From Bacteroidales bacterium (GTDB lineage: Bacteria > Bacteroidota > Bacteroidia > Bacteroidales > WCHB1-69): a DNA stretch of 37,325 nucleotides. The position numbers and the translations under genes are program-made. Positions 25,768 through 37,325 of this stretch are shown here, one piece after another. Under the pieces are notes generated by a model. The model was not told the DNA's origin and made no database searches. It saw only the letters and a list, made by a program, of their open reading frames with translations. The stretch covers positions 1 through 37,325 of the forward strand of contig JAFVNW010000022.1 of assembly GCA_017506175.1 (NCBI GenBank), read 5' to 3'. The stretch's first letter is position 1. Every line of letters begins with the position of its first letter.

Positions 25768-27123
25768 TTAAACCTTGCCCTCCGACCTCTCCCACATCGA
25801 GCGCTCGCAGGTGTAGGTGGTCATCCGCAGGAGGTCGGGAACGCTGTAGTGCAGGTGCGTGCAGAGGGCATGAACGAGATAGCAGACGCAGATATGCTGG
25901 AACTGCGGGATGCTCAGCGGTCCCACCGCCCATGTATGGCCGTCATCGAGCTTGTTGGAGTCGCCGTTGTGGATCGTGTGCGCGTTCATCCGCGAAAGTG
26001 ATGACACCGCCCACAGCATCTCGTTCCAATGCGATCCGTAGAACGCATCCTCCTCCATCGGGAAGAGCTTCGGGCCTTTATAGTCGTGACAGTAGTTGAT
26101 TTCCCCTCTCAAGTGGAAACGGTTCGCGCTGTGCTCGCCGATGTCGGGAAGCAAGTCCAGCTGCCGCTGAAGTTGTTGCTGTTCTTCGTAAAAGCGGTTC
26201 GTCATCTTCAGCAGCGCCTCGTTCACATGCTCAAAGCGGCGCACTTCGGCCTCGGTGCAGTGCAACGCGAACATCCGGTTGAGGATGCAGGCGCGCTCGT
26301 CCAACAGCCGGTCAAGCAGTTCCTCCGTGCGCGAGTCCCAGTCCAAATTACCATCGAACGGCTTGGCCATGCGCAGGATTTCCTTTTCGGTGGCAGCAAG
26401 CATTTTGCGGAGCGTGTCCATGTCCGATATTTCCTGTATGTTGTCGCTCATTTTACTTGAAATGTCCCACATCAGACAACTCAACTGCAGGTCGGGGACG
26501 CTGTTTGGGCTGCACTCGGTGGCGAGCACCTCCATCAGGTCCCGTTTGCCGCCGACAATATGGTAGTATTCGTCGCGGTGGAGCAGGCGCACGTCATCCA
26601 CCCATTCTCCGATACGCTCCCAATCGTGCACGTCGTGCAGGGTGGGACGGTAGTCGTCGTGCATCAATACCGTGCGCAATAGTTGCGTGAGCGCGATGAC
26701 TGCCACATGGAGTTCTCCGGCCATGTTTTTCAACTCTTGGATGATGTTGTCGATTTCGTCTTCGCGGTTCGGGAGCGGCTGCGAGGAGCTTACCAGCTGC
26801 AGGTAGTCGATGATGACCCAGCGGATGTCGTATGTCTCGCGCAGTTGGCGCACTTTCTCCCGGATAGAATCCACCGTCAATGTTGCCGTATCGTCAAGGT
26901 GGATCCATTCGGGGCATTTCCCGGCTGCGTGGCGTAGCAGCAGCTGGTCGCGTTTCATTTCGAGGGAGAAATAGGCGGTGGGCAGCTGGGCTTCCGTTGC
27001 AAGTTGGAAGGCGAGAGTGGTTTTGCCCATGCCGGGGCGTCCGCCGATGAGGTTGAGCGTGCCGGGCCGGTAGATACTGGCCAGCCGTTTCAGCACTTGT
27101 TCTTCTTGTTTGTCGTTTTTCAT
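25768..27123 (-). CDS. DnaB-type ATPase domain fused to an unknown C-terminal domain
   Basis: This 451-aa protein starts directly with a RecA/DnaB helicase C-terminal domain. Walker A is GGRPGMGKTT near 27-36, the LEM block is YFSLEMKRDQLLLR, Walker B is WVIIDYLQLV with D106, and the LTQLLR and RPTLHDVHDWERIGEWVDDV segments correspond to the SQLxR and RPxLSDLRESGxIEQDAD motifs of DnaB, though the second is diverged. The DnaB N-terminal primase-binding domain is absent. From about residue 230 the rest (coiled-coil-like EEQQQLQRQLDLLPD, several His/Trp/Cys) has no family I know. Length differs from replicative DnaB (about 450-500 with N-domain). It neighbours an exonuclease and a PLD nuclease in an accessory region. 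Confidence 0.82.
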   Translation of the reverse strand: MKNDKQEEQVLKRLASIYRPGTLNLIGGRPGMGKTTLAFQLATEAQLPTAYFSLEMKRDQLLLRHAAGKCPEWIHLDDTATLTVDSIREKVRQLRETYDIRWVIIDYLQLVSSSQPLPNREDEIDNIIQELKNMAGELHVAVIALTQLLRTVLMHDDYRPTLHDVHDWERIGEWVDDVRLLHRDEYYHIVGGKRDLMEVLATECSPNSVPDLQLSCLMWDISSKMSDNIQEISDMDTLRKMLAATEKEILRMAKPFDGNLDWDSRTEELLDRLLDERACILNRMFALHCTEAEVRRFEHVNEALLKMTNRFYEEQQQLQRQLDLLPDIGEHSANRFHLRGEINYCHDYKGPKLFPMEEDAFYGSHWNEMLWAVSSLSRMNAHTIHNGDSNKLDDGHTWAVGPLSIPQFQHICVCYLVHALCTHLHYSVPDLLRMTTYTCERSMWERSEGKV

Positions 27124-27147: not shown

Positions 27148-27228
27148 GTGCCTGCCCGCATTTTATGATGGGGTCTGCTATTAGCAGCCACGGGGGCAAA
27201 GATAGTGTAGGGGGATGATTGGGATATC

Positions 27229-27256
27229 GTAGAGACGTGCCATGGCGCGTCTCTAC
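27229..27256. repeat. Palindrome copy A (arms GTAGAGACG / CGTCTCTAC)
   Basis: This 28-bp palindrome has arms GTAGAGACG and CGTCTCTAC and the core TGCCATGGCG. The stop codon of the exonuclease (TAG, minus, 27255-27253) lies inside its arm. The same arms recur at 27853, 30003, 35166 and 36797. Confidence 0.85.
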
Positions 27257-27747
27257 AAAATCATCATGGCGATCCTTGCGCAGGCCTCGGCATCGGCGAG
27301 GGCGTGGTGATGGTTCTCGAGGGGGTAACCGCAGGCGGCCGACACGGTGTGCAGCTGGTGATTCGGCAGTTGCTGTCCGAAATGGCGGCGAGAGGCGCGG
27401 CAGGTGCAAAAGAACTGGTAATCAGGATAATCCATCTGATAGGTTTGGAAAACGGATTTGAGGCAGCCCTCGTCAAAAGGACTGTTGTGGGCCACCAGGG
27501 GCAGTCCGGCGATGCGGGGTGCTATTTGTCGCCACACGTCTGGGAAGAGCGGGGCGGTGTCGGTGTCTTCATGACCCAAGCCGTGTACCTCCTGACAGAA
27601 CCACGCATAGTAGTTGGGAGTGGGGCGGATGAGGCTGTAGAAGGTGTCGGTGATGAGGCCGCCGCGCACCACCACCACGCCCACGCTGCACACACTGCTG
27701 CGCTGTCCGTTGGCGGTCTCGAAATCGATGGCGGCAAAGTCGTTCAT
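27253..27747 (-). CDS. DEDDh 3'-5' exonuclease (DnaQ/RNase T fold)
   Basis: This 164-aa single-domain exonuclease has all five catalytic residues visible: D8 and E10 in AAIDFETANG, D92 in AHNSPFDEGCL, and H147 and D152 in HHALADAEACARIA. Such enzymes resemble the DNA polymerase III epsilon subunit and are Mg-dependent. It probably acts on DNA, but substrate cannot be read. It lies between the DnaB-like gene (start 129 nt further on) and the PLD gene; palindromes A and B bracket it exactly, with copy A overlapping its stop codon. Confidence 0.9.
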   Translation of the reverse strand: MNDFAAIDFETANGQRSSVCSVGVVVVRGGLITDTFYSLIRPTPNYYAWFCQEVHGLGHEDTDTAPLFPDVWRQIAPRIAGLPLVAHNSPFDEGCLKSVFQTYQMDYPDYQFFCTCRASRRHFGQQLPNHQLHTVSAACGYPLENHHHALADAEACARIAMMIL

Positions 27748-27788
27748 ATCAGAGGGTTACATTTTCCGAAGGGTTCGGAACCCGCCGG

Positions 27789-27821
27789 CAAAAATACGAT
27801 AATTTTACGGGTGCAAAGATA
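27789..27821 (-). promoter_or_regulatory. Two -7 boxes upstream of the exonuclease gene
   Basis: The minus strand has TATTTTTG (27789-27796) and TATCTTTG (27814-27821) upstream of the ATG at 27747. The second box is the inner end of the conserved module attached to palindrome copy B. Confidence 0.45.
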
Positions 27822-27852
27822 GGATGTAGGTATGAAAATGGGGGGCATAATG

Positions 27853-27880
27853 GTAGAGACGCGCCATGGCACGTCTCTAC
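27853..27880. repeat. Palindrome copy B with attached promoter-like segment
   Basis: Arms GTAGAGACG/CGTCTCTAC with core CGCCATGGCA. On its left a 39-nt segment (27814-27852, containing GGTATGAAAATG and GGCATAATG) leads to a TAnnTTTG box. The copy starts 20 nt after the stop of the PLD gene. Confidence 0.85.
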
Positions 27881-27899
27881 AGTCGCATGGCCACTTCTT

Positions 27900-28415
27900 T
27901 CACGCTATCGGGTCGGCGCAGAACTGGCGGCGTTTACAGGTTTTGCAGTGCAGTCCCATCCACACGCTGTCGAACTGCTGGATGGCCTGCGACACGAGGG
28001 CGGGGTCGTCGGTGAGGATGCCCGCCTCGAAATTGCGGGTGTTCTCGCCCTTCATGCCGATGCCCGCGCCGGTGAGGTTGGCGCTGCCGATATAGGCCTC
28101 CTGGCAGTCGAACACCAGCAGTTTGAAGTGGACGCGTGGACAGAGCGCCCGTTCCATCCCCTCGATGAGCGACGGGTATTGGTCGAAATCCTCGCGGAAG
28201 GCGGGTCCGGGTTCCTTGGCGTGGATGAGGCGCACCTCCACGCCTTTGCGCACCAACTGAGCCAGCACCGCGAGGAACGGCTTCGTGCCGGTACCCACCT
28301 TCACGTAGAGGTCTTTGATGTCGGCAGTACCAATCCACAGCGACTTCCTGACGGAGGCCACGCGGAAGAGGACGAGGTTGTAGTGGTCGGTATTGGCGAT
28401 GTAGGTGGTGGGCAT
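27900..28415 (-). CDS. Phospholipase D-family nuclease-like protein with C-terminal Cys cluster
   Basis: This 171-aa protein has a single HKD motif: H96-x-K98-x4-D103 in RVHFKLLVFD, followed by YIGSANLTGAGIG (G110, S111, N113) and a trailing Glu (E130). Single-HKD members act as dimers and are usually nucleases (Nuc, BfiI type). The C-terminus carries HCKTCKRRQFC (C157-x2-C160-x5-C166), a possible metal-binding tail. The start lies 13 nt after the stop of the DUF4143 gene, without a promoter of its own. A truncated copy of its first 95 nt is found at 29812-29906. Confidence 0.88.
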   Translation of the reverse strand: MPTTYIANTDHYNLVLFRVASVRKSLWIGTADIKDLYVKVGTGTKPFLAVLAQLVRKGVEVRLIHAKEPGPAFREDFDQYPSLIEGMERALCPRVHFKLLVFDCQEAYIGSANLTGAGIGMKGENTRNFEAGILTDDPALVSQAIQQFDSVWMGLHCKTCKRRQFCADPIA

Positions 28416-28428
28416 AAGGGAGCGTGTT

Positions 28429-29679
28429 TTACTTGTCTATGACAGTTTCATCTGTAAGAAAATCAAGCAGGCTGAGATTGAGAAAGCCGTTGTCGTCGTA
28501 ATATGGAAGAACGGGTTCTTTTTGTACAAGAATTTTTCTGAAGGAGTCATTAATGTGCCGTAAGGACTTGATTTCCTTTTGGCGCTTTTCTTCATCATAC
28601 AAAGCGTATGCGGATTGTATGTAGTATCGTTGACTGCCTCTGTTGCACACAAAATCAACTTCAAATTGTTTTCTTTTCGATTTCCCGTCTTCCTTGCAGT
28701 TCACTTCCACCATTCCTACATCCACCGACATCCCCCTCATCCTAAGTTCGTTATAAATTACATTCTCCATAATGTGTCCGTAGTCGTTCTGCCGGAAGTT
28801 CAGTCGGGCATTGCGTAGACCGACATCCACAAAATAGTACTTCATGGGCGTGCCGATATAGTGTCTGCCCCTCACATCATACCGTTGGGCTTTTTCTATG
28901 AGAAATGCATCTTGCATATATTGCAGGTATGAGGCCACGGTATCGCGTGCTATGTGCATCTTTTTTTCAGAAATAAAGGTGTTGGTCAATGTCAGTGGAT
29001 TGGTCAGAGTGCCGATGGTGGAGGCCACCACATTCATCAGTTCCTCCATTTCCTCATTGCCGCGCAGGTTATAGCGTGAAATGATGTCTTGGAAATAGGT
29101 TTGAGAGAACAGAGCTTGCAGATAGGTGGCTTTGCGATTTTCACTGCCGATCGACAGCAGTCCCGGCATACCACCATAAACTTGGTAATTGTTCCAAGCG
29201 TCGGATTCAGTGCCGTCGAACACTGACAAAAATTCAGAAAACGAGAGGGGGTACACCCTCACCTCATCGCCTCTGCCACGGAATTCGGTGATAATGTCTG
29301 AGGAAAGAAATTTTGAATTGGAACCAGTGACGTAAGTGTCTGCATTGGGGATATGGAGGAAACCGTTCAGCAGGTACTCAAAATTCGGCACAAGTTGGAT
29401 TTCATCAAGAAGTATGTAGTAGATGTCCTTGTCCACAATTCTGGCTCTGACATATTGGTTCAGGTTGTCCGGGTTAAGATATTCTCTGTTTTGGTAATCG
29501 TCCAAAGCGAAGGAGATGATATGGTCTTCTTGCACTCCCAGTTCCATCAGTTTCCGTTTGAACAGATTGAAAAGCAGATAGGATTTGCCGCATCTGCGCA
29601 CACCTGTAACGATCTTTATCAGGCCGTTGTTCCTGCGTTCCAGTAAGGAAGAAATGTACCGTTCTCTTTTAGCCTCCAT
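28429..29679 (-). CDS. AAA ATP-binding protein with DUF4143 domain (second copy)
   Basis: This 416-aa protein has Walker A GVRRCGKS at 26-33, Walker B YILLDEIQLVPNF and sensor VTGSNSKFLS. The DUF4143 half contains MKYYFVDVGLRNARLNF, IMENVIYNELRMRG and the nuclease-like FEVDFVCNRG. It is a divergent paralog of the gene at 7611-8855 (same architecture, low identity by eye). The ATG at 29679 is preferred, 46 nt after a TATTTTTG box (29725-29732). The gene is bracketed by the intact PLD gene and a PLD 5' fragment, suggesting it was inserted there. Confidence 0.9.
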   Translation of the reverse strand: MEAKRERYISSLLERRNNGLIKIVTGVRRCGKSYLLFNLFKRKLMELGVQEDHIISFALDDYQNREYLNPDNLNQYVRARIVDKDIYYILLDEIQLVPNFEYLLNGFLHIPNADTYVTGSNSKFLSSDIITEFRGRGDEVRVYPLSFSEFLSVFDGTESDAWNNYQVYGGMPGLLSIGSENRKATYLQALFSQTYFQDIISRYNLRGNEEMEELMNVVASTIGTLTNPLTLTNTFISEKKMHIARDTVASYLQYMQDAFLIEKAQRYDVRGRHYIGTPMKYYFVDVGLRNARLNFRQNDYGHIMENVIYNELRMRGMSVDVGMVEVNCKEDGKSKRKQFEVDFVCNRGSQRYYIQSAYALYDEEKRQKEIKSLRHINDSFRKILVQKEPVLPYYDDNGFLNLSLLDFLTDETVIDK

Positions 29680-29724
29680 TATTCTATTCGTTTTTTTTGC
29701 GTAAATACGCATTTTTTACGACTG

Positions 29725-29732
29725 CAAAAATA
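29725..29732 (-). promoter_or_regulatory. -7 box of the second DUF4143 gene
   Basis: The minus strand reads TATTTTTG. It lies between the PLD remnant and the DUF4143 gene, so it belongs to the inserted unit or formed at the junction. Confidence 0.4.
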
Positions 29733-29906
29733 CACTTATTTTCGATTTAACACAAAGCTTAAATGAATATCTGTGTTTTTTATAAATATGTTGGTTGACA
29801 ACTCTTTACTGTCGGCGGTGCCCATCCACAGCGACTTCTTGACGGAGGCCACGCGGGAGAGCACGAGGTTGTAGTGGTCGGTATTGGCAATATAGGTGGT
29901 GGGCAT
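29733..29906 (-). pseudogene. 5' fragment of a PLD-family gene
   Basis: Positions 29812-29906 match 28321-28415, the beginning of the intact PLD gene, with 8 mismatches in 95 nt. The translation opens MPTTYIANTDHYNLVLSRVA, as the intact protein does apart from one residue. After TADSKELSTN the similarity ends and an unrelated AT-rich tail runs to a stop at 29733, giving 57 codons. All catalytic motifs are missing. A TATCTTTG box at 29935-29942 and the palindrome module lie directly upstream, so this fragment kept a promoter while the intact gene did not. Confidence 0.8.
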
Positions 29907-29970
29907 GATCCGGATGTTGGTGAAAAATCAGCGGCAAAGATAACACATTTGTATGAAAATGGGTGGCATG

Positions 29971-30030
29971 GTAGAGACGCGCCGCGTGCGTCCGTGAAAC
30001 CTGTAGAGACGCGCCATGGCACGTCTCTAC
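29971..30030. repeat. Palindrome copy C: one partial and one full unit
   Basis: A full unit lies at 30003-30030 (core CGCCATGGCA). A partial one begins GTAGAGACGCGCC at 29971. The attached left segment (29935-29970, GTATGAAAATGGGTGGCATG) resembles those of copies B, D and E but is 3 nt shorter. Confidence 0.8.
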
Positions 30031-30033
30031 CAT

Positions 30034-30065
30034 GGCATGCCACACGTAGCATGTCGGAGAGAGGC
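30034..30065. repeat. Second repeat family, copy 1 (GGCATGCCAC-CGTAGCATGTCGGAGA)
   Basis: The segment GGCATGCCACACGTAGCATG followed by TCGGAGA recurs almost unchanged at 35278-35309. Here its right arm has decayed, so the GCATGTC-GGA-GACATGC hairpin is incomplete. Confidence 0.65.
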
Positions 30066-30134
30066 GATTTTCTTGCTTCGGGCCAGATGTCAGCGTCATG
30101 GAGAGGGGGTGGGGAGCATGCAAGTGCTGTGGAA

Positions 30135-32678
30135 CTATATTTCACCGAGTTCTTTCAACAACTCCTTAAATACTTTCATAGCATCTTTGCACGAGTAATG
30201 TTGAGAATAATACCTATGGTCTTCTTTCTTAAATTCAAAACAATGTTTTTTAGCGATGTCTTTTAATTCTTCAAAGGTAGCAAGATATGTTTTCTCAGAT
30301 TCTTCAAATTCATTCGGTCTAAAGAATAATCTAAATCTATACTGGTCTGCTTTTCCTCTTTCATAAAATAAGTCAATAGCTACAACTCTTTTGGAATTAC
30401 AAGTATGATTAATATACATACATGTGTCTCTTTCTTTAAAGAATTTTGGAGAAGACCATTGGGTATAATCATTTGGATTTTTATCTCTATCGGATAAAAC
30501 ATCTTGCCAAAAAGCATAAGAACGCAATTCACTCTTGCTCTTATCTCTGTTTTGCGTCCTATGTAATAATACTATGTTATATTCATTTTCCCAACAACAC
30601 ATAGATTCTTTCATCTCAGACCATATAGATGGGTATTTTATGAAAAAATACCGCCAATCTTCAATATTATTGGTGTTATTTATGATAGATAATAGTTTGC
30701 AGTTAATTCTACGAGTATATTCCTCGGAATAGTGTGATAGATCCAATTTATCTGATAAAAAGTCCTTATATAGATAGTCCACAAGAGACTTCACACATTG
30801 GTTATGCGATTGTCCCTCACATTCTTCTGAATCATTAAGGAATTTATGCCACAAGCTCCTATCATTCATAAACTTCCATTTTTCTCCATACCAAAAGCCA
30901 AAGCCGTAATGCGTTGTAAAACACATCAAGCTGCGTTGCAAATAATAATCTGGAATAGTATTACGGGGGCCTGTTCCTCCAAATAATAGATGGAATAGAG
31001 TTGAATATTCCTTAAATATTTGTTTGTTCTTCTTTTCAGGCAAAAAGTTGAATATAAAATTTATAGTACCCTTACAAAAAGCAATACTTTCAAGTTCGTT
31101 GAATACTTCCACCCACTCATTGTCTTCAACAATCCATTGTGCCTTCCTGATTTCCTCTTCGACTTGACTTTCGATGAATCCAGAAACTGTTTTTTTTATT
31201 ATATCTTCGGTTAATAATAATTTATATATATTTTTTTCTCTGCATAATGCAGAAAGAAGTTGAATGGATTTCAAGACTTTACTGATGTTATCTTTCCTAA
31301 TGTCCGTTCCCAATATCAAGTTCCTCATCACACGCATCCAGTCAAAGAAAGACGTTGCGGACTCGGACTCTTCCTTTGCAGAATTTACTAAAGCATACAA
31401 TAGTGGCAATGTCTTGTTATAAGTGGCCTCTTTGAATGCTATCTGATATAAGACAGAACTTTTGTTATCGAAATCTAATGATTTTACAAAATTTTCGCGA
31501 ATACCATTTATTTTTCCACTTATAGACGTCAAAGTATCTAAACTCTCACTGATAAATTTGAAGACTTCCTTATTTCCAAAAATATTGATTTTCTCTATCC
31601 AATAAAGTGGAATCATTTTATCTCCTTTTTGAAGCAAAGAAAATGTTCTTTCTCTTAAATGTTCCGCATTCGCATTTTCGGGCAGTTTGTCTTCCTCGTG
31701 CCTCCATTCGTTTAGAAAAGCAATATAACCTGACTTCACGTCTTCTTGGGACTCGCCTTCATTTGCACGAAACGATTCTAGAAAACAAGAGTTATTATCA
31801 TCTTGAATCCAATGTAGCAACAACATGCTGTACAAATAACGCAACCTCTCATCATCAATTTCTTCGGGTTTTTCTTTATTTTTATTTCTATTGTCCCAAA
31901 ACAAATCTGTCCAAGCATTATCCATCTTGCTTTGCCATTGTTTGGTAAATTCATTTTCTTTACCGAATAGCGTTTGCACTTGCTTGTCCATCCACGATTT
32001 CAAATTTTCGAAATATGACAATGGCCGACCCCGACCATTCATTTTAACGTATATATCGTCATTAAGCCCCTTTGTTTCATCATAACGACCATTTTCCAAT
32101 TTTTTAAAATCAAAACCAATATTATCCTCATGCACATTCCCTATGGCTTTCCCACGAAGTTTGTCATCAATCAACTGCAATGTTTTAAGCATATTCTCGA
32201 CCGTTGTATCCTGTTGCCATCCAAAAACGAACCAATCCGAATCAACAATCTTCTCTTTCAAATTTTGCTTTTGGGAAGAATCTGATTCTTTTTCTTGTTT
32301 TTTCTCTTTTAGAAAATCCCCCAACTTTTCAGGTAATTTTTCACAAAAATTATGAGCGAACTCTCTTGACTCAAATTGAAGTCCTACTTTGAAATCTTTC
32401 TGTAGTCTTGCATAAATATATAAATGCAGTAACCAGAGTGTTATAAGTCGTTGTTGTCCATCGATAGGAACGAATTTGGTTTCATGATCGTAACCATAAA
32501 TGTAGTTCAGGTTCACTTTTTTGTCTGTCGTGCTCAATGCCGAAATGAGTTCGTCAAGCAGTGGACTTATCACATCTAATCTTCCGCCCTGCACATAGTC
32601 GCGTTGAAGCAGAGGAATCATGATGTTTTTATGGTAGTCAATAAACTCCGATTTAAAAGTTTTCAATTGCTTTCCCAT
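30135..32678 (-). CDS. Large DUF262-domain protein (847 aa), second gene of a DUF262 pair
   Basis: The N-terminal DUF262 (ParB/Srx-like) domain is clear: IPLLQRDYVQGG at 21-32 and VPIDGQQRLITLWLL at 70-84, where DGQQR is the family's nucleotide-binding motif. From about residue 150 to the end (some 700 aa) no known domain is seen. There is a helical Trp/Asn-rich body with blocks such as VLLHRTQNRDKSKSELRSYA and WSSPKFFKERDT, and a helical C-terminus. No DUF1524 or HNH motif was found, unlike its partner. The gene starts 12 nt after the stop of the first DUF262 gene. Composition is much more AT-rich than the flanking genes, suggesting transfer. DUF262 proteins occur in modification-dependent restriction (GmrSD) and other defence loci; function here is inferred. 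Confidence 0.85.
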   Translation of the reverse strand: MGKQLKTFKSEFIDYHKNIMIPLLQRDYVQGGRLDVISPLLDELISALSTTDKKVNLNYIYGYDHETKFVPIDGQQRLITLWLLHLYIYARLQKDFKVGLQFESREFAHNFCEKLPEKLGDFLKEKKQEKESDSSQKQNLKEKIVDSDWFVFGWQQDTTVENMLKTLQLIDDKLRGKAIGNVHEDNIGFDFKKLENGRYDETKGLNDDIYVKMNGRGRPLSYFENLKSWMDKQVQTLFGKENEFTKQWQSKMDNAWTDLFWDNRNKNKEKPEEIDDERLRYLYSMLLLHWIQDDNNSCFLESFRANEGESQEDVKSGYIAFLNEWRHEEDKLPENANAEHLRERTFSLLQKGDKMIPLYWIEKINIFGNKEVFKFISESLDTLTSISGKINGIRENFVKSLDFDNKSSVLYQIAFKEATYNKTLPLLYALVNSAKEESESATSFFDWMRVMRNLILGTDIRKDNISKVLKSIQLLSALCREKNIYKLLLTEDIIKKTVSGFIESQVEEEIRKAQWIVEDNEWVEVFNELESIAFCKGTINFIFNFLPEKKNKQIFKEYSTLFHLLFGGTGPRNTIPDYYLQRSLMCFTTHYGFGFWYGEKWKFMNDRSLWHKFLNDSEECEGQSHNQCVKSLVDYLYKDFLSDKLDLSHYSEEYTRRINCKLLSIINNTNNIEDWRYFFIKYPSIWSEMKESMCCWENEYNIVLLHRTQNRDKSKSELRSYAFWQDVLSDRDKNPNDYTQWSSPKFFKERDTCMYINHTCNSKRVVAIDLFYERGKADQYRFRLFFRPNEFEESEKTYLATFEELKDIAKKHCFEFKKEDHRYYSQHYSCKDAMKVFKELLKELGEI

Positions 32679-32690
32679 TGCTCTATCTCC

Positions 32691-34514
32691 TTATTTTTGT
32701 TTGAAATAGTAATCCAACTTTTCATGCATATCCGTTACGTATGCATCATAATCATATTTTTCCCACCAAGTGAGTTTAATTCCTCTTTCTTTTGTATATG
32801 ATTTGGTATAAACTTGTTGCGTACAAACTGGAACATATACGGATTCAACATTTTTTTCAATATCGTTGTCGTTTTTGAGTCCTGAAGCCATAATTACAAT
32901 TCGCCGCTTGCGTGGAAACAATGCATTATGAAAACTCTTGTTAGTATGCTCGTCAAGCAGAACAAGATTACCAATGCCATCTTTGTCGTCAATTAGTTCA
33001 ACGTTTATCTTCTTTATCACTTTCTCATATAATTCACTAAAATTTTCATCATCTGTATAATCTCCACATTTTTTCTCAAGGTCAATTATTTCTTCATCGT
33101 TTGATATTTCTGGGAAATCATCTTTTATACTACCAATCCAATCTTCTCTATCTTGTGCTTTAGTAAGATCGTTTTTGGTTTGAGAATCTATATGTTCAAT
33201 GTTCCATTTTTGTTTATACAGCAACTCAAACGGGAAGTGTTCGTACGTAAATCTGAGATTCTTTTTGTCTTTCAATTCACAGTATCGCTGTAAAAGAGTT
33301 TCAATATTGTGGAGAACAAACAATCTTCTCAAGTGCTTTTTGGCATCGTCAAACGAACAATCGTCCAAAGAATCCTTCTTAAAGGGCATTATTTCCTGTA
33401 TTTGTATTTTCAATCCATCAATATAGTCACTTTTCTTTTGGGATTCATAGTCTTCTAAAATGCTATCCATCTTTTTATCACAATAGGTGAGGAAGCCAAT
33501 ATAATGGAAAGTGTAGGGATTTTCGAACAGATCCCTTAGTCGTTGGTATTTTTGACGGACTTCTTTCCACATATTAGACAATTCATTTTTTTCATAATTT
33601 GAAAATCTGAAGAATGACTTTCTGGAGTCTATCTGATAATCATCATTGGAAACGCCTGCTATCATATTAAAAAGAAAATCCATTCGTGATTGTCCTTTTT
33701 CGGGTTCGACATCCTTTTGTTGAAACATATACCAGAAACGATCTTCTTTGAGTTGACGTTCCATTAGTTCAAATTGCGCAGCTATTTGCTGTCGGTTATC
33801 CAAATCATTGGTTTTATCAAGCAACAGAGCTTTAATAAGGTCGCTATTGCTCAACTCTATTTTGCCGCTATTAAGATTTCGAAATGCCTCGTGCTCATCA
33901 CCCTCCACAATATACCATAATACTTGAATAGATTTTTCATCCTTATTCCTCAACAATAATTCTTTGAATTGTTTGCGTACGTTATCGATATTCCCATCAC
34001 CTTGTAATACGCATCTATCTTCATCTTCTAATAACGTATAAACTTCTCTATCATGGAACCACTCTTTGATTGTCAGATAAGCACGGGATATAAAAAAGAA
34101 GTCAATGTTATCTTCATTCTCCCTCTCAATATTATGAATTGCTTTTAAAAAATCAGGACGCTCATCATTCCCATCTCTTTCATAATCAAAATTATATAGA
34201 TTTTCGTCTTTGTCGCCCTTGAAAAGATACTTCCATAACAAATAGAGTGTAGTGAGACGTTGCTGTCCATCAATGACCTTGTATTTTTTTGAACAATCTG
34301 GTACTAAGGCTATTGGTTGCAAACAATACAAAGGCTTTCTATCCCCTTCGTCAATAAAATCCTTTATATCCTGAAGAAGGATGCGAACATTATCTGGTGT
34401 CCATTTATAACCACGTTGTTGATAGGGTATTACAAATTTATAACCCTTCAATTCAGAAATCGCTTTTAAATCGATATTATTATTCTCTGTAATATTATTA
34501 TCATTCTCTGCCAT
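32691..34514 (-). CDS. DUF262 + DUF1524 (HNH-like) GmrSD-type protein, first gene of the pair
   Basis: This 607-aa protein has the DUF262 domain with IPYQQRGYKW at 29-38 and IDGQQRLTTL at 81-90, and a middle FRNLNSGKIELSNSDLIKAL block typical of the family. The C-terminal DUF1524 nuclease domain shows WNIEHIDSQ (E440-H441) and GNLVLLDEHTNKSFHN (from 515) followed by ALFPRKRR, the ββα-metal HNH-like pattern. GmrSD-type enzymes use DUF262 for nucleotide-dependent regulation and DUF1524 for DNA cleavage, often of modified phage DNA. Composition is AT-rich. A good promoter lies at 34543-34572. It would be the nuclease of the two-gene unit. Confidence 0.9.
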   Translation of the reverse strand: MAENDNNITENNNIDLKAISELKGYKFVIPYQQRGYKWTPDNVRILLQDIKDFIDEGDRKPLYCLQPIALVPDCSKKYKVIDGQQRLTTLYLLWKYLFKGDKDENLYNFDYERDGNDERPDFLKAIHNIERENEDNIDFFFISRAYLTIKEWFHDREVYTLLEDEDRCVLQGDGNIDNVRKQFKELLLRNKDEKSIQVLWYIVEGDEHEAFRNLNSGKIELSNSDLIKALLLDKTNDLDNRQQIAAQFELMERQLKEDRFWYMFQQKDVEPEKGQSRMDFLFNMIAGVSNDDYQIDSRKSFFRFSNYEKNELSNMWKEVRQKYQRLRDLFENPYTFHYIGFLTYCDKKMDSILEDYESQKKSDYIDGLKIQIQEIMPFKKDSLDDCSFDDAKKHLRRLFVLHNIETLLQRYCELKDKKNLRFTYEHFPFELLYKQKWNIEHIDSQTKNDLTKAQDREDWIGSIKDDFPEISNDEEIIDLEKKCGDYTDDENFSELYEKVIKKINVELIDDKDGIGNLVLLDEHTNKSFHNALFPRKRRIVIMASGLKNDNDIEKNVESVYVPVCTQQVYTKSYTKERGIKLTWWEKYDYDAYVTDMHEKLDYYFKQK

Positions 34515-34542
34515 ATAGTATGCTTTTGTTTTTTCTCCGCCG

Positions 34543-34572
34543 CAAAATTACAACTTTCCACCTTTCCTCCAA
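34543..34572 (-). promoter_or_regulatory. Bacteroidetes-type promoter of the DUF262 pair
   Basis: On the minus strand TTG (34572-34570), a 19-nt spacer and TAATTTTG (34550-34543), 28 nt before the ATG at 34514. Confidence 0.6.
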
Positions 34573-34589
34573 CAATTTCCACAAAACCC

Positions 34590-34814
34590 TCACACCTCAT
34601 TCAATCTTGCGTTCTCGTCCTTCTCGATAATGCTGATACATTTTTCAATGTCGGAGATAAGATCTTTCATGACCTCAATTTTAACCTGCTTTGTGTAGCT
34701 TTGAATTGGGATATCGTGGCTGAATTCATAGTCAAGAAGTTCGCGAATGGAAAATTCAATTGATTCCCCTTCTGGGCTGACCAAGGTGAAATAGAAATCG
34801 TTAAATTCGTTCAT
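34590..34814 (-). CDS. Small acidic hypothetical protein, 74 aa
   Basis: The protein reads MNEFNDFYFTLVSPEGESIE... and ends IEKCISIIEKDENARLNEV: a short beta segment followed by a charged helix. No family is recognised. It lies upstream of the DUF262 pair on the same strand, with the promoter of the pair in the 75-nt gap, so it may be transcribed separately. An antitoxin- or regulator-like role would be speculation. Confidence 0.6.
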   Translation of the reverse strand: MNEFNDFYFTLVSPEGESIEFSIRELLDYEFSHDIPIQSYTKQVKIEVMKDLISDIEKCISIIEKDENARLNEV

Positions 34815-34861
34815 AAGTCTTTCCCTGAATTCGTGTCGGGCGCAACTGTTAATTTATGCGA

Positions 34862-35095
34862 TTAAATTTCTTTCATTTTCCAAACAGAAAACAGCGCACC
34901 CCTTCCGCCCTTCAGGTAGAAAAGGCATCGCCAAACGCCACGAGACACTGAAAAACCAGAAAGAGTACGCCTATAACAGACGTACTCTACGGCGTGCTCT
35001 GTCTCTGAATTTTGGCGATTTCTTTCTACAGCCACACCATAGCTTACGCTATCATCATATTGAGGCGCAAAAATAATCATTTTTCTCATAAACAC
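34862..35095 (-). CDS. Doubtful small ORF, 77 aa
   Basis: The open frame runs MFMRKMIIFAPQYDDSVSYG... to GALFSVWKMKEI. It contains an inverted repeat AGAGTACG/CGTACTCT (34962-34988, 11-nt loop), which is unusual inside a gene, and its composition (Arg, Val, Cys, Ser) looks more like translated repeat DNA. A TATTTTTG box lies at 35127-35134. It may be a genuine small gene or part of a multicopy element. Confidence 0.3.
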   Translation of the reverse strand: MFMRKMIIFAPQYDDSVSYGVAVERNRQNSETEHAVEYVCYRRTLSGFSVSRGVWRCLFYLKGGRGALFSVWKMKEI

Positions 35096-35165
35096 ACCTG
35101 TTCGTGCTCATTTTTTTTTTCGGCTGCAAAAATAAGGTGCGGGTATGAAAATGTATGGCATAATC

Positions 35166-35193
35166 GTAGAGACGCGCCATGGCACGTCTCTAC
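35166..35193. repeat. Palindrome copy D with attached promoter-like segment
   Basis: Same sequence as copy B in the palindrome (core CGCCATGGCA). The left segment (35127-35165) carries CAAAAATA, GGGTATGAAAATG and GGCATAAT at exactly the same spacing (39 nt) as in copy B. Confidence 0.85.
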
Positions 35194-35720
35194 AGGATTT
35201 GTAAACCACATCCCCACAGCGGGCTCCCGGAGGGAGCCAATCTCAATAACCCCGAATGCAATTTGGGGCGAGGCAATGGCATGCCACGCGTAGCATGTCG
35301 GAGACATGCGATCTCCTTTAACTCGCTGATTATCTGAGAGTGCGTGCCGCTGGCACGCCTGCCGCCTTATCGACCGACCCATCTCACACTGCACCCACTT
35401 CGTTCCGCTGATGTGAGGTTATTGAAAATTTGTGTCTTCGACACAATGCGGATTTGATGTTTCTCAAGAGATACACAATTTTTCCAAATTACACAAAAGG
35501 TGTAATACAAAAGGTGTAAAATGTTTTTGCATAGTCACTCCTCGAGACTACCAGCCCGCCGAGGATTTTTTCCTTTTTACCGCCTATTCTTATCCCTCAA
35601 ACCTTTCACCTATATTCCCACCAGCGGATACCCCCAATTCCTCTCCATCTCCCGCAAGATTTCGCGGAAGACGGCGGGTATTGCTGTGGTGTCTCTTCGA
35701 GACACTCAGTTTCTACCTTT
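35194..35720. repeat. Cluster of short hairpins with three-base loops
   Basis: No gene is supported in this 527-nt gap. It contains GGCTCCC-GGA-GGGAGCC (35222-35238), CCCCGAAT-GCA-ATTTGGGG (35250-35268, one G-T), GCATGTC-GGA-GACATGC (35293-35309), GCGTGCC-GCT-GGCACGC (35342-35358), TTGTGTC-TTC-GACACAA (35430-35446) and GTGTCTC-TTC-GAGACAC near 35687-35703. There is also a 13-bp direct repeat ACAAAAGGTGTAA at 35493-35505 and 35507-35519. Near 35613-35700 the minus strand reads AVFREILREMERNWGYPLVG before a stop, possibly the end of a lost gene. Confidence 0.75.
35278..35309. repeat. Second repeat family, copy 2
   Basis: GGCATGCCACGCGTAGCATG followed by TCGGAGACATGC matches copy 1 at 30034 in the left part and here completes a perfect 7-bp hairpin with loop GGA. 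Confidence 0.7.
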
Positions 35721-36845: not shown

Positions 36846-37325
36846 CTACAGATATTGTCGGCGTGTCCCCATTATCAGTTCCTTTTTGATGGCCTCTTCC
36901 TCCTCGGCCACCATATTGCTCCACAAGGCAGACCTTTCCAGATCTTCTATTGGAATATATTGTTGGTAGCGTTCGAAGAAATCCATATTCAAAAAGTTTC
37001 TTCGGCCGCCGTGGATGCAATGCCGATGATAATAATTGTTGGTCAGCTGGTTCCAATCCCACCGGTCAATGTGTTTGTCTATGAGTTCGTAAGAGAGAGG
37101 CAGGCTGGAATTTCCGGAAAGTTCCGACCAGTCCCAGCTGTCTTTGAATTTCTCAATCACTTCTTCCGAAAGAATGTCATCATCCGCATTTCTTGAGAAC
37201 ACCTTCCAGTCAATTCTGCCACGGAACTGCTCCAATAGACCGACATCCCAATGGATACTTGAATTTCCCGATACTTCTTTCCAGTTCAGATCCCTTGAAT
37301 GTCGCATCAGCATATTCTCGGTAAG
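36846..37325 (-). CDS. WDW-repeat protein (5' end outside the window)
   Basis: The frame is open to the window edge, and an internal ATG at 37313 need not be the start. The visible 159 residues contain repeats of about 28-30 aa: DLNWKEVSGNSSIHWDVGLL, RIDWKVFSRNADDDILSEEV, SWDWSELSGNSSLPLSYELI and RWDWNQLTNNYYHRHCIHGG. Each has D-W-x2-(L/V/F)-S-x-N followed by a short helix ending in Glu-x-(L/I/F). The final repeat is degenerate and the C-terminus is Glu-rich. Such WDW repeats occur in Bacteroidetes proteins of unknown role, probably as a solenoid. Confidence 0.72.
   Translation of the reverse strand, partial: LTENMLMRHSRDLNWKEVSGNSSIHWDVGLLEQFRGRIDWKVFSRNADDDILSEEVIEKFKDSWDWSELSGNSSLPLSYELIDKHIDRWDWNQLTNNYYHRHCIHGGRRNFLNMDFFERYQQYIPIEDLERSALWSNMVAEEEEAIKKELIMGTRRQYL

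What the first reader, a model, noticed from the sequence alone, without database searches (positions are those of the whole stretch)
30135..34514. AT-rich pair of large DUF262 proteins as a candidate two-gene defence system
Two adjacent DUF262 genes (607 aa with a DUF1524 HNH-like nuclease, then 847 aa without one) share one promoter, are 12 nt apart and are far more AT-rich than their flanks. Single DUF262-DUF1524 fusions (GmrSD type) are known restriction enzymes. Here a second, larger DUF262 protein has about 700 residues of unassigned sequence. A regulatory or sensing partner for the nuclease is my inference.
Basis: partly seen in the sequence, partly recalled or inferred. Interest (0 to 1): 0.75.

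Follow-up and report, generated by a model that had tools for sequence, protein, structure and literature searches.

The report
GrwAB-like two-gene phage-DNA restriction pair
Two neighbouring bacterial genes most likely make a two-part enzyme that cuts chemically disguised virus DNA; it looks like a further member of a system type described in 2025, and related genomes carry this pair, a very different pair, or none at the same spot.

Summary
Minus strand: A (32691-34514, 607 aa, DUF262 + DUF1524 nuclease) lies 12 nt before B (30135-32678, 847 aa, DUF262 only), at 34% GC against 47.5% for the window. The pair is real: in 47 of 47 judgeable loci a B-type gene has an A-type gene upstream on the same strand, directly so in 46; one further B is cut by a contig end. 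In 395 genomes of the phylum, the 12 strong B hits and 12 strong A hits are the same genomes. A and B DUF262 domains form separate clades with correlated trees. The architecture is in print: GrwAB of Vibrio cholerae (PMC12137116), a modification-dependent restriction system needing both proteins. B beyond its DUF262 part matches no known family or fold. Fresh here: one same-genus genome has a pair only 25% (A) and 31% (start of B) identical between 92-96% identical DNA flanks, another an empty site at a 43-nt repeat. New member of a known kind.

The parts
32691..34514 (-). gene A, 607 aa: N-terminal DUF262/GmrSD_N (PYQQR 30-34, DGQQR 82-86, FRNLN 211-215), helical linker, C-terminal DUF1524/GmrSD_C His-Me nuclease (E440-H441, N516, N525); GrwA-like
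   Evidence: Pfam; motifs; invariant columns; model nearest SspE and BrxU
30135..32678 (-). gene B, 847 aa: N-terminal DUF262/GmrSD_N (PLLQR 22-26, DGQQR 73-77, YVKMN 210-214), then about 600 residues of mostly helical sequence of no known family; GrwB-like
   Evidence: Pfam; motifs; conservation; model of middling quality; no fold match
34543..34550 (-). possible -7 promoter box TAATTTTG, 28 nt upstream of the start of gene A (weak evidence)
   Evidence: pattern match; 46 such boxes in the window
30032..30074 (+). left copy of a 43-nt direct repeat at the edge of the A-B cassette
   Evidence: the repeat finder D6; single copy at the empty site in G088
35276..35318 (+). right copy of the 43-nt direct repeat (88% identical)
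   Evidence: the repeat finder D6

Best explanation
[quoted passage not shown] Most likely A and B form a complex through their two related DUF262 (ParB/Srx-fold) NTPase domains. When the complex meets foreign DNA with unusual or hypermodified bases, NTP binding and hydrolysis by both DUF262 domains licenses the His-Me nuclease of A to cut it, and the long helical C-terminal part of B serves as recognition or scaffold surface. Shown here by computation: both DUF262 motif sets and the H/N/N nuclease residues are present; the pairing is constant in the sample; each partner's DUF262 forms one clade; the two trees correlate; genomes of one genus carry this pair, another pair, or none in the same slot. 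Inferred from GrwAB and TgvAB: requirement of both proteins, complex formation, NTPase control, sensing of DNA modification. Inferred only: the division of labour between A and B, and that the slot differences arose by exchange of the cassette.
For: Architecture and motifs. The GrwA residues reported as essential (R81, H431, N521, N530) have counterparts R86, H441, N516, N525, with the same 9-residue step between the two Asn; GrwB R86 corresponds to R77 (PMC12137116 section 11). Nuclease gene first, as in grwAB. Co-occurrence: own family 13 of 14 genomes with a match, the 14th cut by a contig end; L002 1 of 1; plasmids 10 of 10 loci opened out of 15 records; viral contigs 12 of 12; phylum sample 12 of 12 hits above 100 bits and the same 12 genomes above 250 bits from the A side. 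The own genome is in two of these sets, so 47 distinct loci; in one (L028) an insertion sequence lies between the genes. 40 measured pairs are all co-directional, median gap -2.5 nt. Separate clades for B (37 of 37, support 0.99) and A (39 of 39, 0.92). Tree correlation r = 0.76 in 35 core pairs, largest of 5000 permutations 0.28. Model of A: SspE E 4.4e-5, BrxU E 4.3e-3; A profile against PDB sequences: SspE 5e-16, BrxU 3.5e-6.
Against: No sequence comparison with V. cholerae GrwA or GrwB was possible. No library gives A or B a full-length defence-family match. The A profile was built from A genes that adjoin B, which favours finding paired ones. GmrSD_C is recognised in 16 of 20 A rows only. 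The match of the A model to SspE and BrxU is local (TM-scores 0.19-0.24). The third DUF262 motif of B begins with Tyr, not Phe, in 34 of 35 rows. One GrwA-type gene, L067, has no B, so A may act alone in some lineages. No activity was measured for this pair.
Confidence: 0.8

Rival explanations
1. A is a self-sufficient single-chain GmrSD/BrxU-type nuclease and B is a separate DUF262 gene that merely sits next to it.
For: A has the complete single-chain architecture; its model is nearest SspE and BrxU; L067 has an A-type gene without B.
Against: Pairing in 47 of 47 judgeable loci, the same 12 genomes from both sides in one phylum sample, and correlated trees. The other hits of the viral scan with the A profile (about 53-127 bits, apart from L067, L070 and L073/L074) have no B-type gene in the stretch fetched, while paired A genes score mostly 440-690 bits. 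H-to-N spacing is 28-32 in those of the other proteins where the script found both motifs, against 52-110 in 27 paired A genes (exception L027).
Confidence: 0.07
2. It is a TgvAB / GmrS1-GmrSD2 (ECOR17) type two-gene system.
For: Also two DUF262 proteins with one DUF1524/HNH domain, both genes needed (PMC11411939 section 9, PMC12373910 section 9).
Against: Gene order is reversed (nuclease first here). TgvB H571 to N602 is 31 residues against 75 here. Two TgvAB-like pairs on viral contigs (L075, L104: 441/434 aa, then 595/593 aa, H505 to N527 = 22) fall outside the A and B clades. GrwB and TgvA are described as distinct outside DUF262.
Confidence: 0.04
3. It is an SspE/DndI-like effector that depends on phosphorothioate marking of the host DNA.
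For: The A model is nearest SspE.
Against: No DndC-family match in the own genome (91% complete) and no such gene among the seven neighbours scanned. This is a weak test: SspB/SspD were not searched for by their own models, and none of the 14 control genomes passed the cut-off either. SspE is one chain.
Confidence: 0.04
4. The pair is a decaying or non-functional remnant.
For: Broken copies exist elsewhere (L023, L028, L070, G419).
Against: In the window both frames are open over full length and the motif residues invariant in the family are present.
Confidence: 0.04

Closest known systems
[quoted passage not shown] cholerae; PMC12137116)
   Same: Two co-directional genes, DUF262-DUF1524 protein first, DUF262 protein with a long C-terminus of unknown domains second; QR and DGQQR motifs in both; His-Me H/N/N with a 9-residue Asn-Asn step; paper reports homologues in about 1% of genomes.
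TgvAB (V. cholerae VPI-2; PMC11411939) and GmrS1/GmrSD2 of ECOR17 (PMC12373910)
   Same: Two DUF262 proteins, one with a nuclease domain, both required for restriction of T-even phages.
   Different: Non-nuclease gene comes first; short H-N spacing (31 in TgvB); two TgvAB-like pairs tested here fall outside the A and B clades.
Single-chain GmrSD / BrxU (PDB 7p9k) / SspE (PDB 7drs, 6jiv)
   Same: Domain architecture of A and, locally, its predicted fold.
   Different: Single chain, no B partner; short H-N spacing (28-32) in the single-gene relatives measured.
PADLOC candidates HEC-06, HEC-05 and Orf5
   Same: A matches their DUF262 part (E down to 5e-17); some other B-family rows match Orf5, SspE or HEC-06 weakly (6, 4 and 3 of 21).
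   Different: Best stretches mostly within the first 140 residues of A; window B matches none at E 0.1.

Membership tests
GrwAB | two adjacent co-directional genes, DUF262-DUF1524 protein first, DUF262 protein second | tested here: met
[quoted passage not shown]
   PYQQR 30-34, DGQQR 82-86, FRNLN 211-215
GrwAB | His-Me H/N/N residues in GrwA (published H431, N521, N530) | tested here: met
   H441, N516, N525; N-N step 9 as published, H-N 75 against 90
GrwAB | GrwB: DUF262 with QR, DGQQR and FxxxN motifs, plus a long C-terminus without a known nuclease domain | tested here: met
   QR 25-26, DGQQR 73-77; third motif YVKMN, so Tyr for Phe; 230-847 without a family match above cut-off
GrwAB | sequence homology to V. 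cholerae GrwA and GrwB or to their HMM profiles | not testable with these tools
   neither sequences nor profiles were found in the collections used; supplementary look-ups are capped at 0
GrwAB | both proteins required; restriction of phages with modified DNA | not testable with these tools
   needs experiment
TgvAB | non-nuclease DUF262 gene first, nuclease gene second | tested here: not met
   order reversed
TgvAB | short H-N spacing in the nuclease (31 in TgvB) | tested here: not met
   75 in A; the mark is not absolute, since L027 is a paired A with short spacing
single-chain GmrSD/BrxU | DUF262-DUF1524 protein acts without a second DUF262 protein | tested here: inconclusive
   strong A hits adjoin B in 12 of 12 genomes, but sufficiency needs experiment and L067 has A alone
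SspABCD-SspE | phosphorothioation genes in the genome | tested here: inconclusive
   no DndC-family hit in the own genome, but the genome is 91% complete, SspB/SspD models were not tried and no control genome passed the cut-off

The most novel reading that the evidence does not exclude
The 600-residue C-terminus of B is an undescribed specificity module that reads the kind of DNA modification, and the two-gene unit is exchanged as an allelic cassette in a fixed chromosomal slot between repeats, so that near-identical backgrounds carry quite different modification specificities, or none.
Probability: 0.25. Interest if true: 0.6.

Novelty: new member of a known kind. Interest (0 to 1): 0.35.

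Why it matters
It shows that the two-gene type IV restriction architecture described in pandemic V. cholerae in 2025 is widespread and constantly paired in the sample, with members on plasmids of Bacteroidota, Campylobacterota, Alpha- and Betaproteobacteria, Actinomycetota, Bacillota and Spirochaetota and on viral contigs. It offers natural same-slot comparisons (two very different pairs and an empty site in one genus) with which to ask what the second protein does and what sets specificity.

Tried and rejected
What B is beyond DUF262. Pfam gives only GmrSD_N above cut-off (a RAC_head match at E 0.29 is below it); of 21 B rows all have GmrSD_N and one has a DUF1664 match at 1.2e-4. NCBIfam and PHROGs: none. 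PADLOC: none for window B. PDB sequences: none with B alone; the B profile touches two DUF262 protein entries (20yv, E 0.0021; 20yw, E 0.13) and SspE (E 0.095) around the DGQQR motif only. Profile comparison aligns B with A over the DUF262 part only. The AlphaFold model of B (14 sequences) is middling (pLDDT 65.5, pTM 0.58) and matches nothing in PDB (best E 2.5) or among viral models (best E 0.083, a DUF262 protein), not even SspE over its DUF262 part in the rows shown; I draw no fold conclusion from it.

Other leads. phmmer of A against PDB gave only SspE at E 0.64; the profile did better. B was not found in phage records, and a single-sequence scan of viral contigs found no relative; the alignment-based scan found 12. 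A 74-aa ORF upstream of A (34590-34814) recurs near pairs in L035, L037 and L042 but at other places, so I do not count it in. No Rfam match in the window. Promoter and terminator scans: 25 against 20.7 and 7 against 3.8 expected. The H-to-N spacing is a supporting mark only: L027 is a paired A with short spacing; the script did not find both motifs in L027, L037, L039 and L054, nor in a number of the single-gene proteins; it took a wrong His (426) in the window, which I replaced by the invariant H441, and probably a wrong one in L026, where the range is not affected. WYL regulators lie in 9 of 46 loci: not a constant partner. Dazbog and Menshen (DUF262-containing, named in PMC10952713, passages read) were not tested.

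Full report
Observation. A carries GmrSD_N (DUF262, E 2.6e-26, residues 23-232) and GmrSD_C (DUF1524, 23.7 bits against a cut-off of 23). B carries GmrSD_N only (E 4e-16, residues 12-229). Their GC is 0.336 and 0.340 in a window of 0.475; the four genes next downstream have 0.44-0.62 (profile). A possible Bacteroidales-type -7 box ends 28 nt before A; a shared promoter is plausible, not shown.

Pairing. A search with B in 104 genomes of the family found 14 with a match. In 13 of them an A-type gene stands directly upstream of a B-type gene on the same strand; in two of these (L032, L036) A runs off the contig; in the 14th (L041) B itself is cut by the contig end and cannot be judged. In G030 the first hit was the A gene, and the profile then found B beside it. 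The one named relative, an uncultured Bacteroidales contig (L002), has A 595 aa and B 849 aa overlapping by 1 nt. Plasmids: 15 records matched; 10 were opened and all 10 hold the pair: Chryseobacterium, Aliarcobacter, Bartonella, Paraburkholderia, Hymenobacter, Peptoclostridium, Rhodococcus, Entomospira, Paenarthrobacter and Paenisporosarcina. In L023 A is in two frames; in L028 B is in two frames and a transposase gene lies between A and B. The five unopened records are of the same organism or genus as opened ones. Viral contigs: a scan with the B alignment gave 12 contigs, all with A upstream. In a sample of 395 genomes of the phylum, B matched 46 at E 1e-3 or better, of which 12 exceed 100 bits; all 12 have A directly upstream, in one (G419) in two frames. 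The other 34 are weak (below 40 bits). The search with the A profile in the same draw matched 123 genomes, of which 12 exceed 250 bits (the next has 120): the same 12. Both cut-offs were set by eye at these gaps, and the A profile was built from A genes that adjoin B. Counting the own genome once, this is 47 of 47 judgeable loci, 46 of them with A directly upstream. Two more pairs came from the A-side scan of viral contigs (L070, with A in two frames, and L074, weak), and so did one A-type gene without B (L067).

Geometry and co-evolution. In 40 pairs with both genes whole (7 of the 47 left out as cut or broken), A and B are always co-directional, with a median gap of -2.5 nt (range -56 to +100; starts taken as the first possible codon, so overlaps are upper bounds). 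Distances in the A and B trees correlate, r = 0.79 in 40 pairs and 0.76 in the 35 without the five most divergent, against permutation maxima of 0.31 and 0.28. In a tree of DUF262 domains, 37 B domains form one clade (support 0.99) and 39 A domains another (0.92), apart from 13 single-gene proteins and two TgvAB-like pairs; one A and three B of the 40 pairs were left out because the motif used to cut the domain was not found. The partners look like old, specific companions rather than recent neighbours.

Anatomy. A has PYQQR (30-34), DGQQR (82-86) and FRNLN (211-215), then E440-H441, N516 and N525 of the His-Me nuclease; Q33, R34, D82-R86, F211, N215, E440, H441, N516 and N525 are invariant in 35 rows. 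B has PLLQR (22-26), DGQQR (73-77) and YVKMN (210-214). Of 66 columns of B with one residue in at least 86% of rows, 59 lie in residues 1-275 and seven beyond: R449, N453, E509, K512, E530, G537 and W675. Profile comparison aligns A and B only over DUF262. The model of A (pLDDT 76.5) is nearest SspE (E 4.4e-5) and BrxU (E 4.3e-3), with low overall TM-scores of 0.19-0.24. The model of B (pLDDT 65.5) is mostly helical from 220 to about 690 with a poorly predicted strand-rich end, and no library match.

What is known. PMC12137116 (section 11, other passages and legends read) describes GrwAB: GrwA = DUF262-DUF1524, GrwB, the second gene, = DUF262 plus multiple domains of unknown function. Both genes are needed; R81A (GrwA), R86A (GrwB) and H431A, N521A, N530A (GrwA) abolish defence; it acts on all tested Queuovirinae and Tevenvirinae and some Markadamsvirinae; escapers change DpdA; homologues are in about 1% of genomes (471 hits). 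PMC11411939 (outline, sections 9 and 10) describes TgvAB, and PMC12373910 (section 9 and passages) the GmrS1/GmrSD2 pair of ECOR17 and three two-gene groups in Enterobacteria; in TgvAB and ECOR17 the gene without the nuclease comes first. PMC12409362 (passages) states the GrwB/TgvA difference. PMC10952713 (passages), PMC4619093 (outline and section 12) and PMC8713573 (passages) gave background. The window pair has the gene order, domains and residue pattern of GrwAB and not the order of TgvAB. From the catalytic His to the first Asn it is 75 residues here, 90 in GrwA, 31 in TgvB, 52-110 in the 27 paired A genes where the script found both motifs, 28-32 in the single-gene relatives where it did, and 22 in two TgvAB-like pairs; L027 is an exception (paired, short).

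The slot. In G081 (same genus) the genes downstream of the pair are near-identical in protein (ATPase 98.6%, PLD-like 94.2%, DEDDh exonuclease 97.6%; DNA 91.9-95.7%), the DnaB-like gene between them is not (55%), and a stretch upstream (34808-35162) is 96.3% identical in DNA; yet the A-B pair between is another one, 25% identical in A and 31.5% over residues 19-267 of B. In G088 the flanks meet without any A-B pair: window 28324-30068 matches up to 7360 (95.4%) and window 35276-35522 from 7324 (87.1%) of L216, and the overlap is a single copy of a 43-nt repeat that the window has at both edges of the cassette (30032-30074 and 35276-35318). Genomes of one genus thus carry this pair, another pair, or none; recombination at repeats is the simplest route (inferred).

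Mechanism. Best reading: a complex of A and B whose two NTPase domains control the nuclease of A upon recognition of modified foreign DNA, with the C-terminus of B as recognition or scaffold surface. Motifs, pairing and the same-slot differences are shown; complex, NTPase control, modification sensing and the role of B are inferred from GrwAB and TgvAB. The host genome has no DndC-family match, a weak point against a phosphorothioate-dependent role like that of SspE.

Verdict. The same-slot comparison is the freshest part; I did not search the literature for such exchange and do not claim that it is unreported.

Noticed in passing
window 27223-35522; L033 (G081); L216 (G088): The same chromosomal slot holds two very different A-B pairs in two genomes of one genus between flanks 92-96% identical in DNA, and no pair in a third; a 43-nt direct repeat marks the edges in the window.
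   Followed up: yes
window 29803-29906 and 28312-28415: The first 104 nt of the PLD-like gene are duplicated (90%) on the far side of the AAA_14/DUF4143 ATPase gene; G088 has further partial copies of that gene.
   Followed up: partly
window 27229, 27853, 30003, 35166: 28-nt palindrome-like repeat GTAGAGACGYGCCATGGCRCGTCTCTAC, four copies in 8 kb of this window, 16 in the genome and present in 8 of 13 genomes of the genus: a dispersed repeat of unknown role.
   Followed up: partly
L067 781-2301 (IMG/VR 2703718612): A GrwA-type gene (493 bits) without any B-type neighbour in the stretch fetched and with a short H-N spacing, like the paired A of Entomospira plasmid p28 (L027).
   Followed up: partly
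L075 5953-9069 and L104 5974-9060: TgvAB-like pairs (441 or 434 aa DUF262 gene, then 595 or 593 aa DUF262 gene with an HNH-type motif) on viral contigs.
   Followed up: partly
window 25768-27123: A 451-aa protein with a DnaB_C-like ATPase domain; in G081 the counterpart is only 55% identical between near-identical neighbours, so it too may be exchanged.
   Followed up: no
window 36846-37313; L002 4418-4957: A protein with repeated DWSELS-like units lies near the pair in the window and in L002 (47% identical); in the genus it is found in only 2 of 13 genomes, the own one included.
   Followed up: partly
window 34590-34814: 74-aa ORF upstream of A, with relatives near A-B pairs in L035, L037 and L042 at other positions.
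   Followed up: partly
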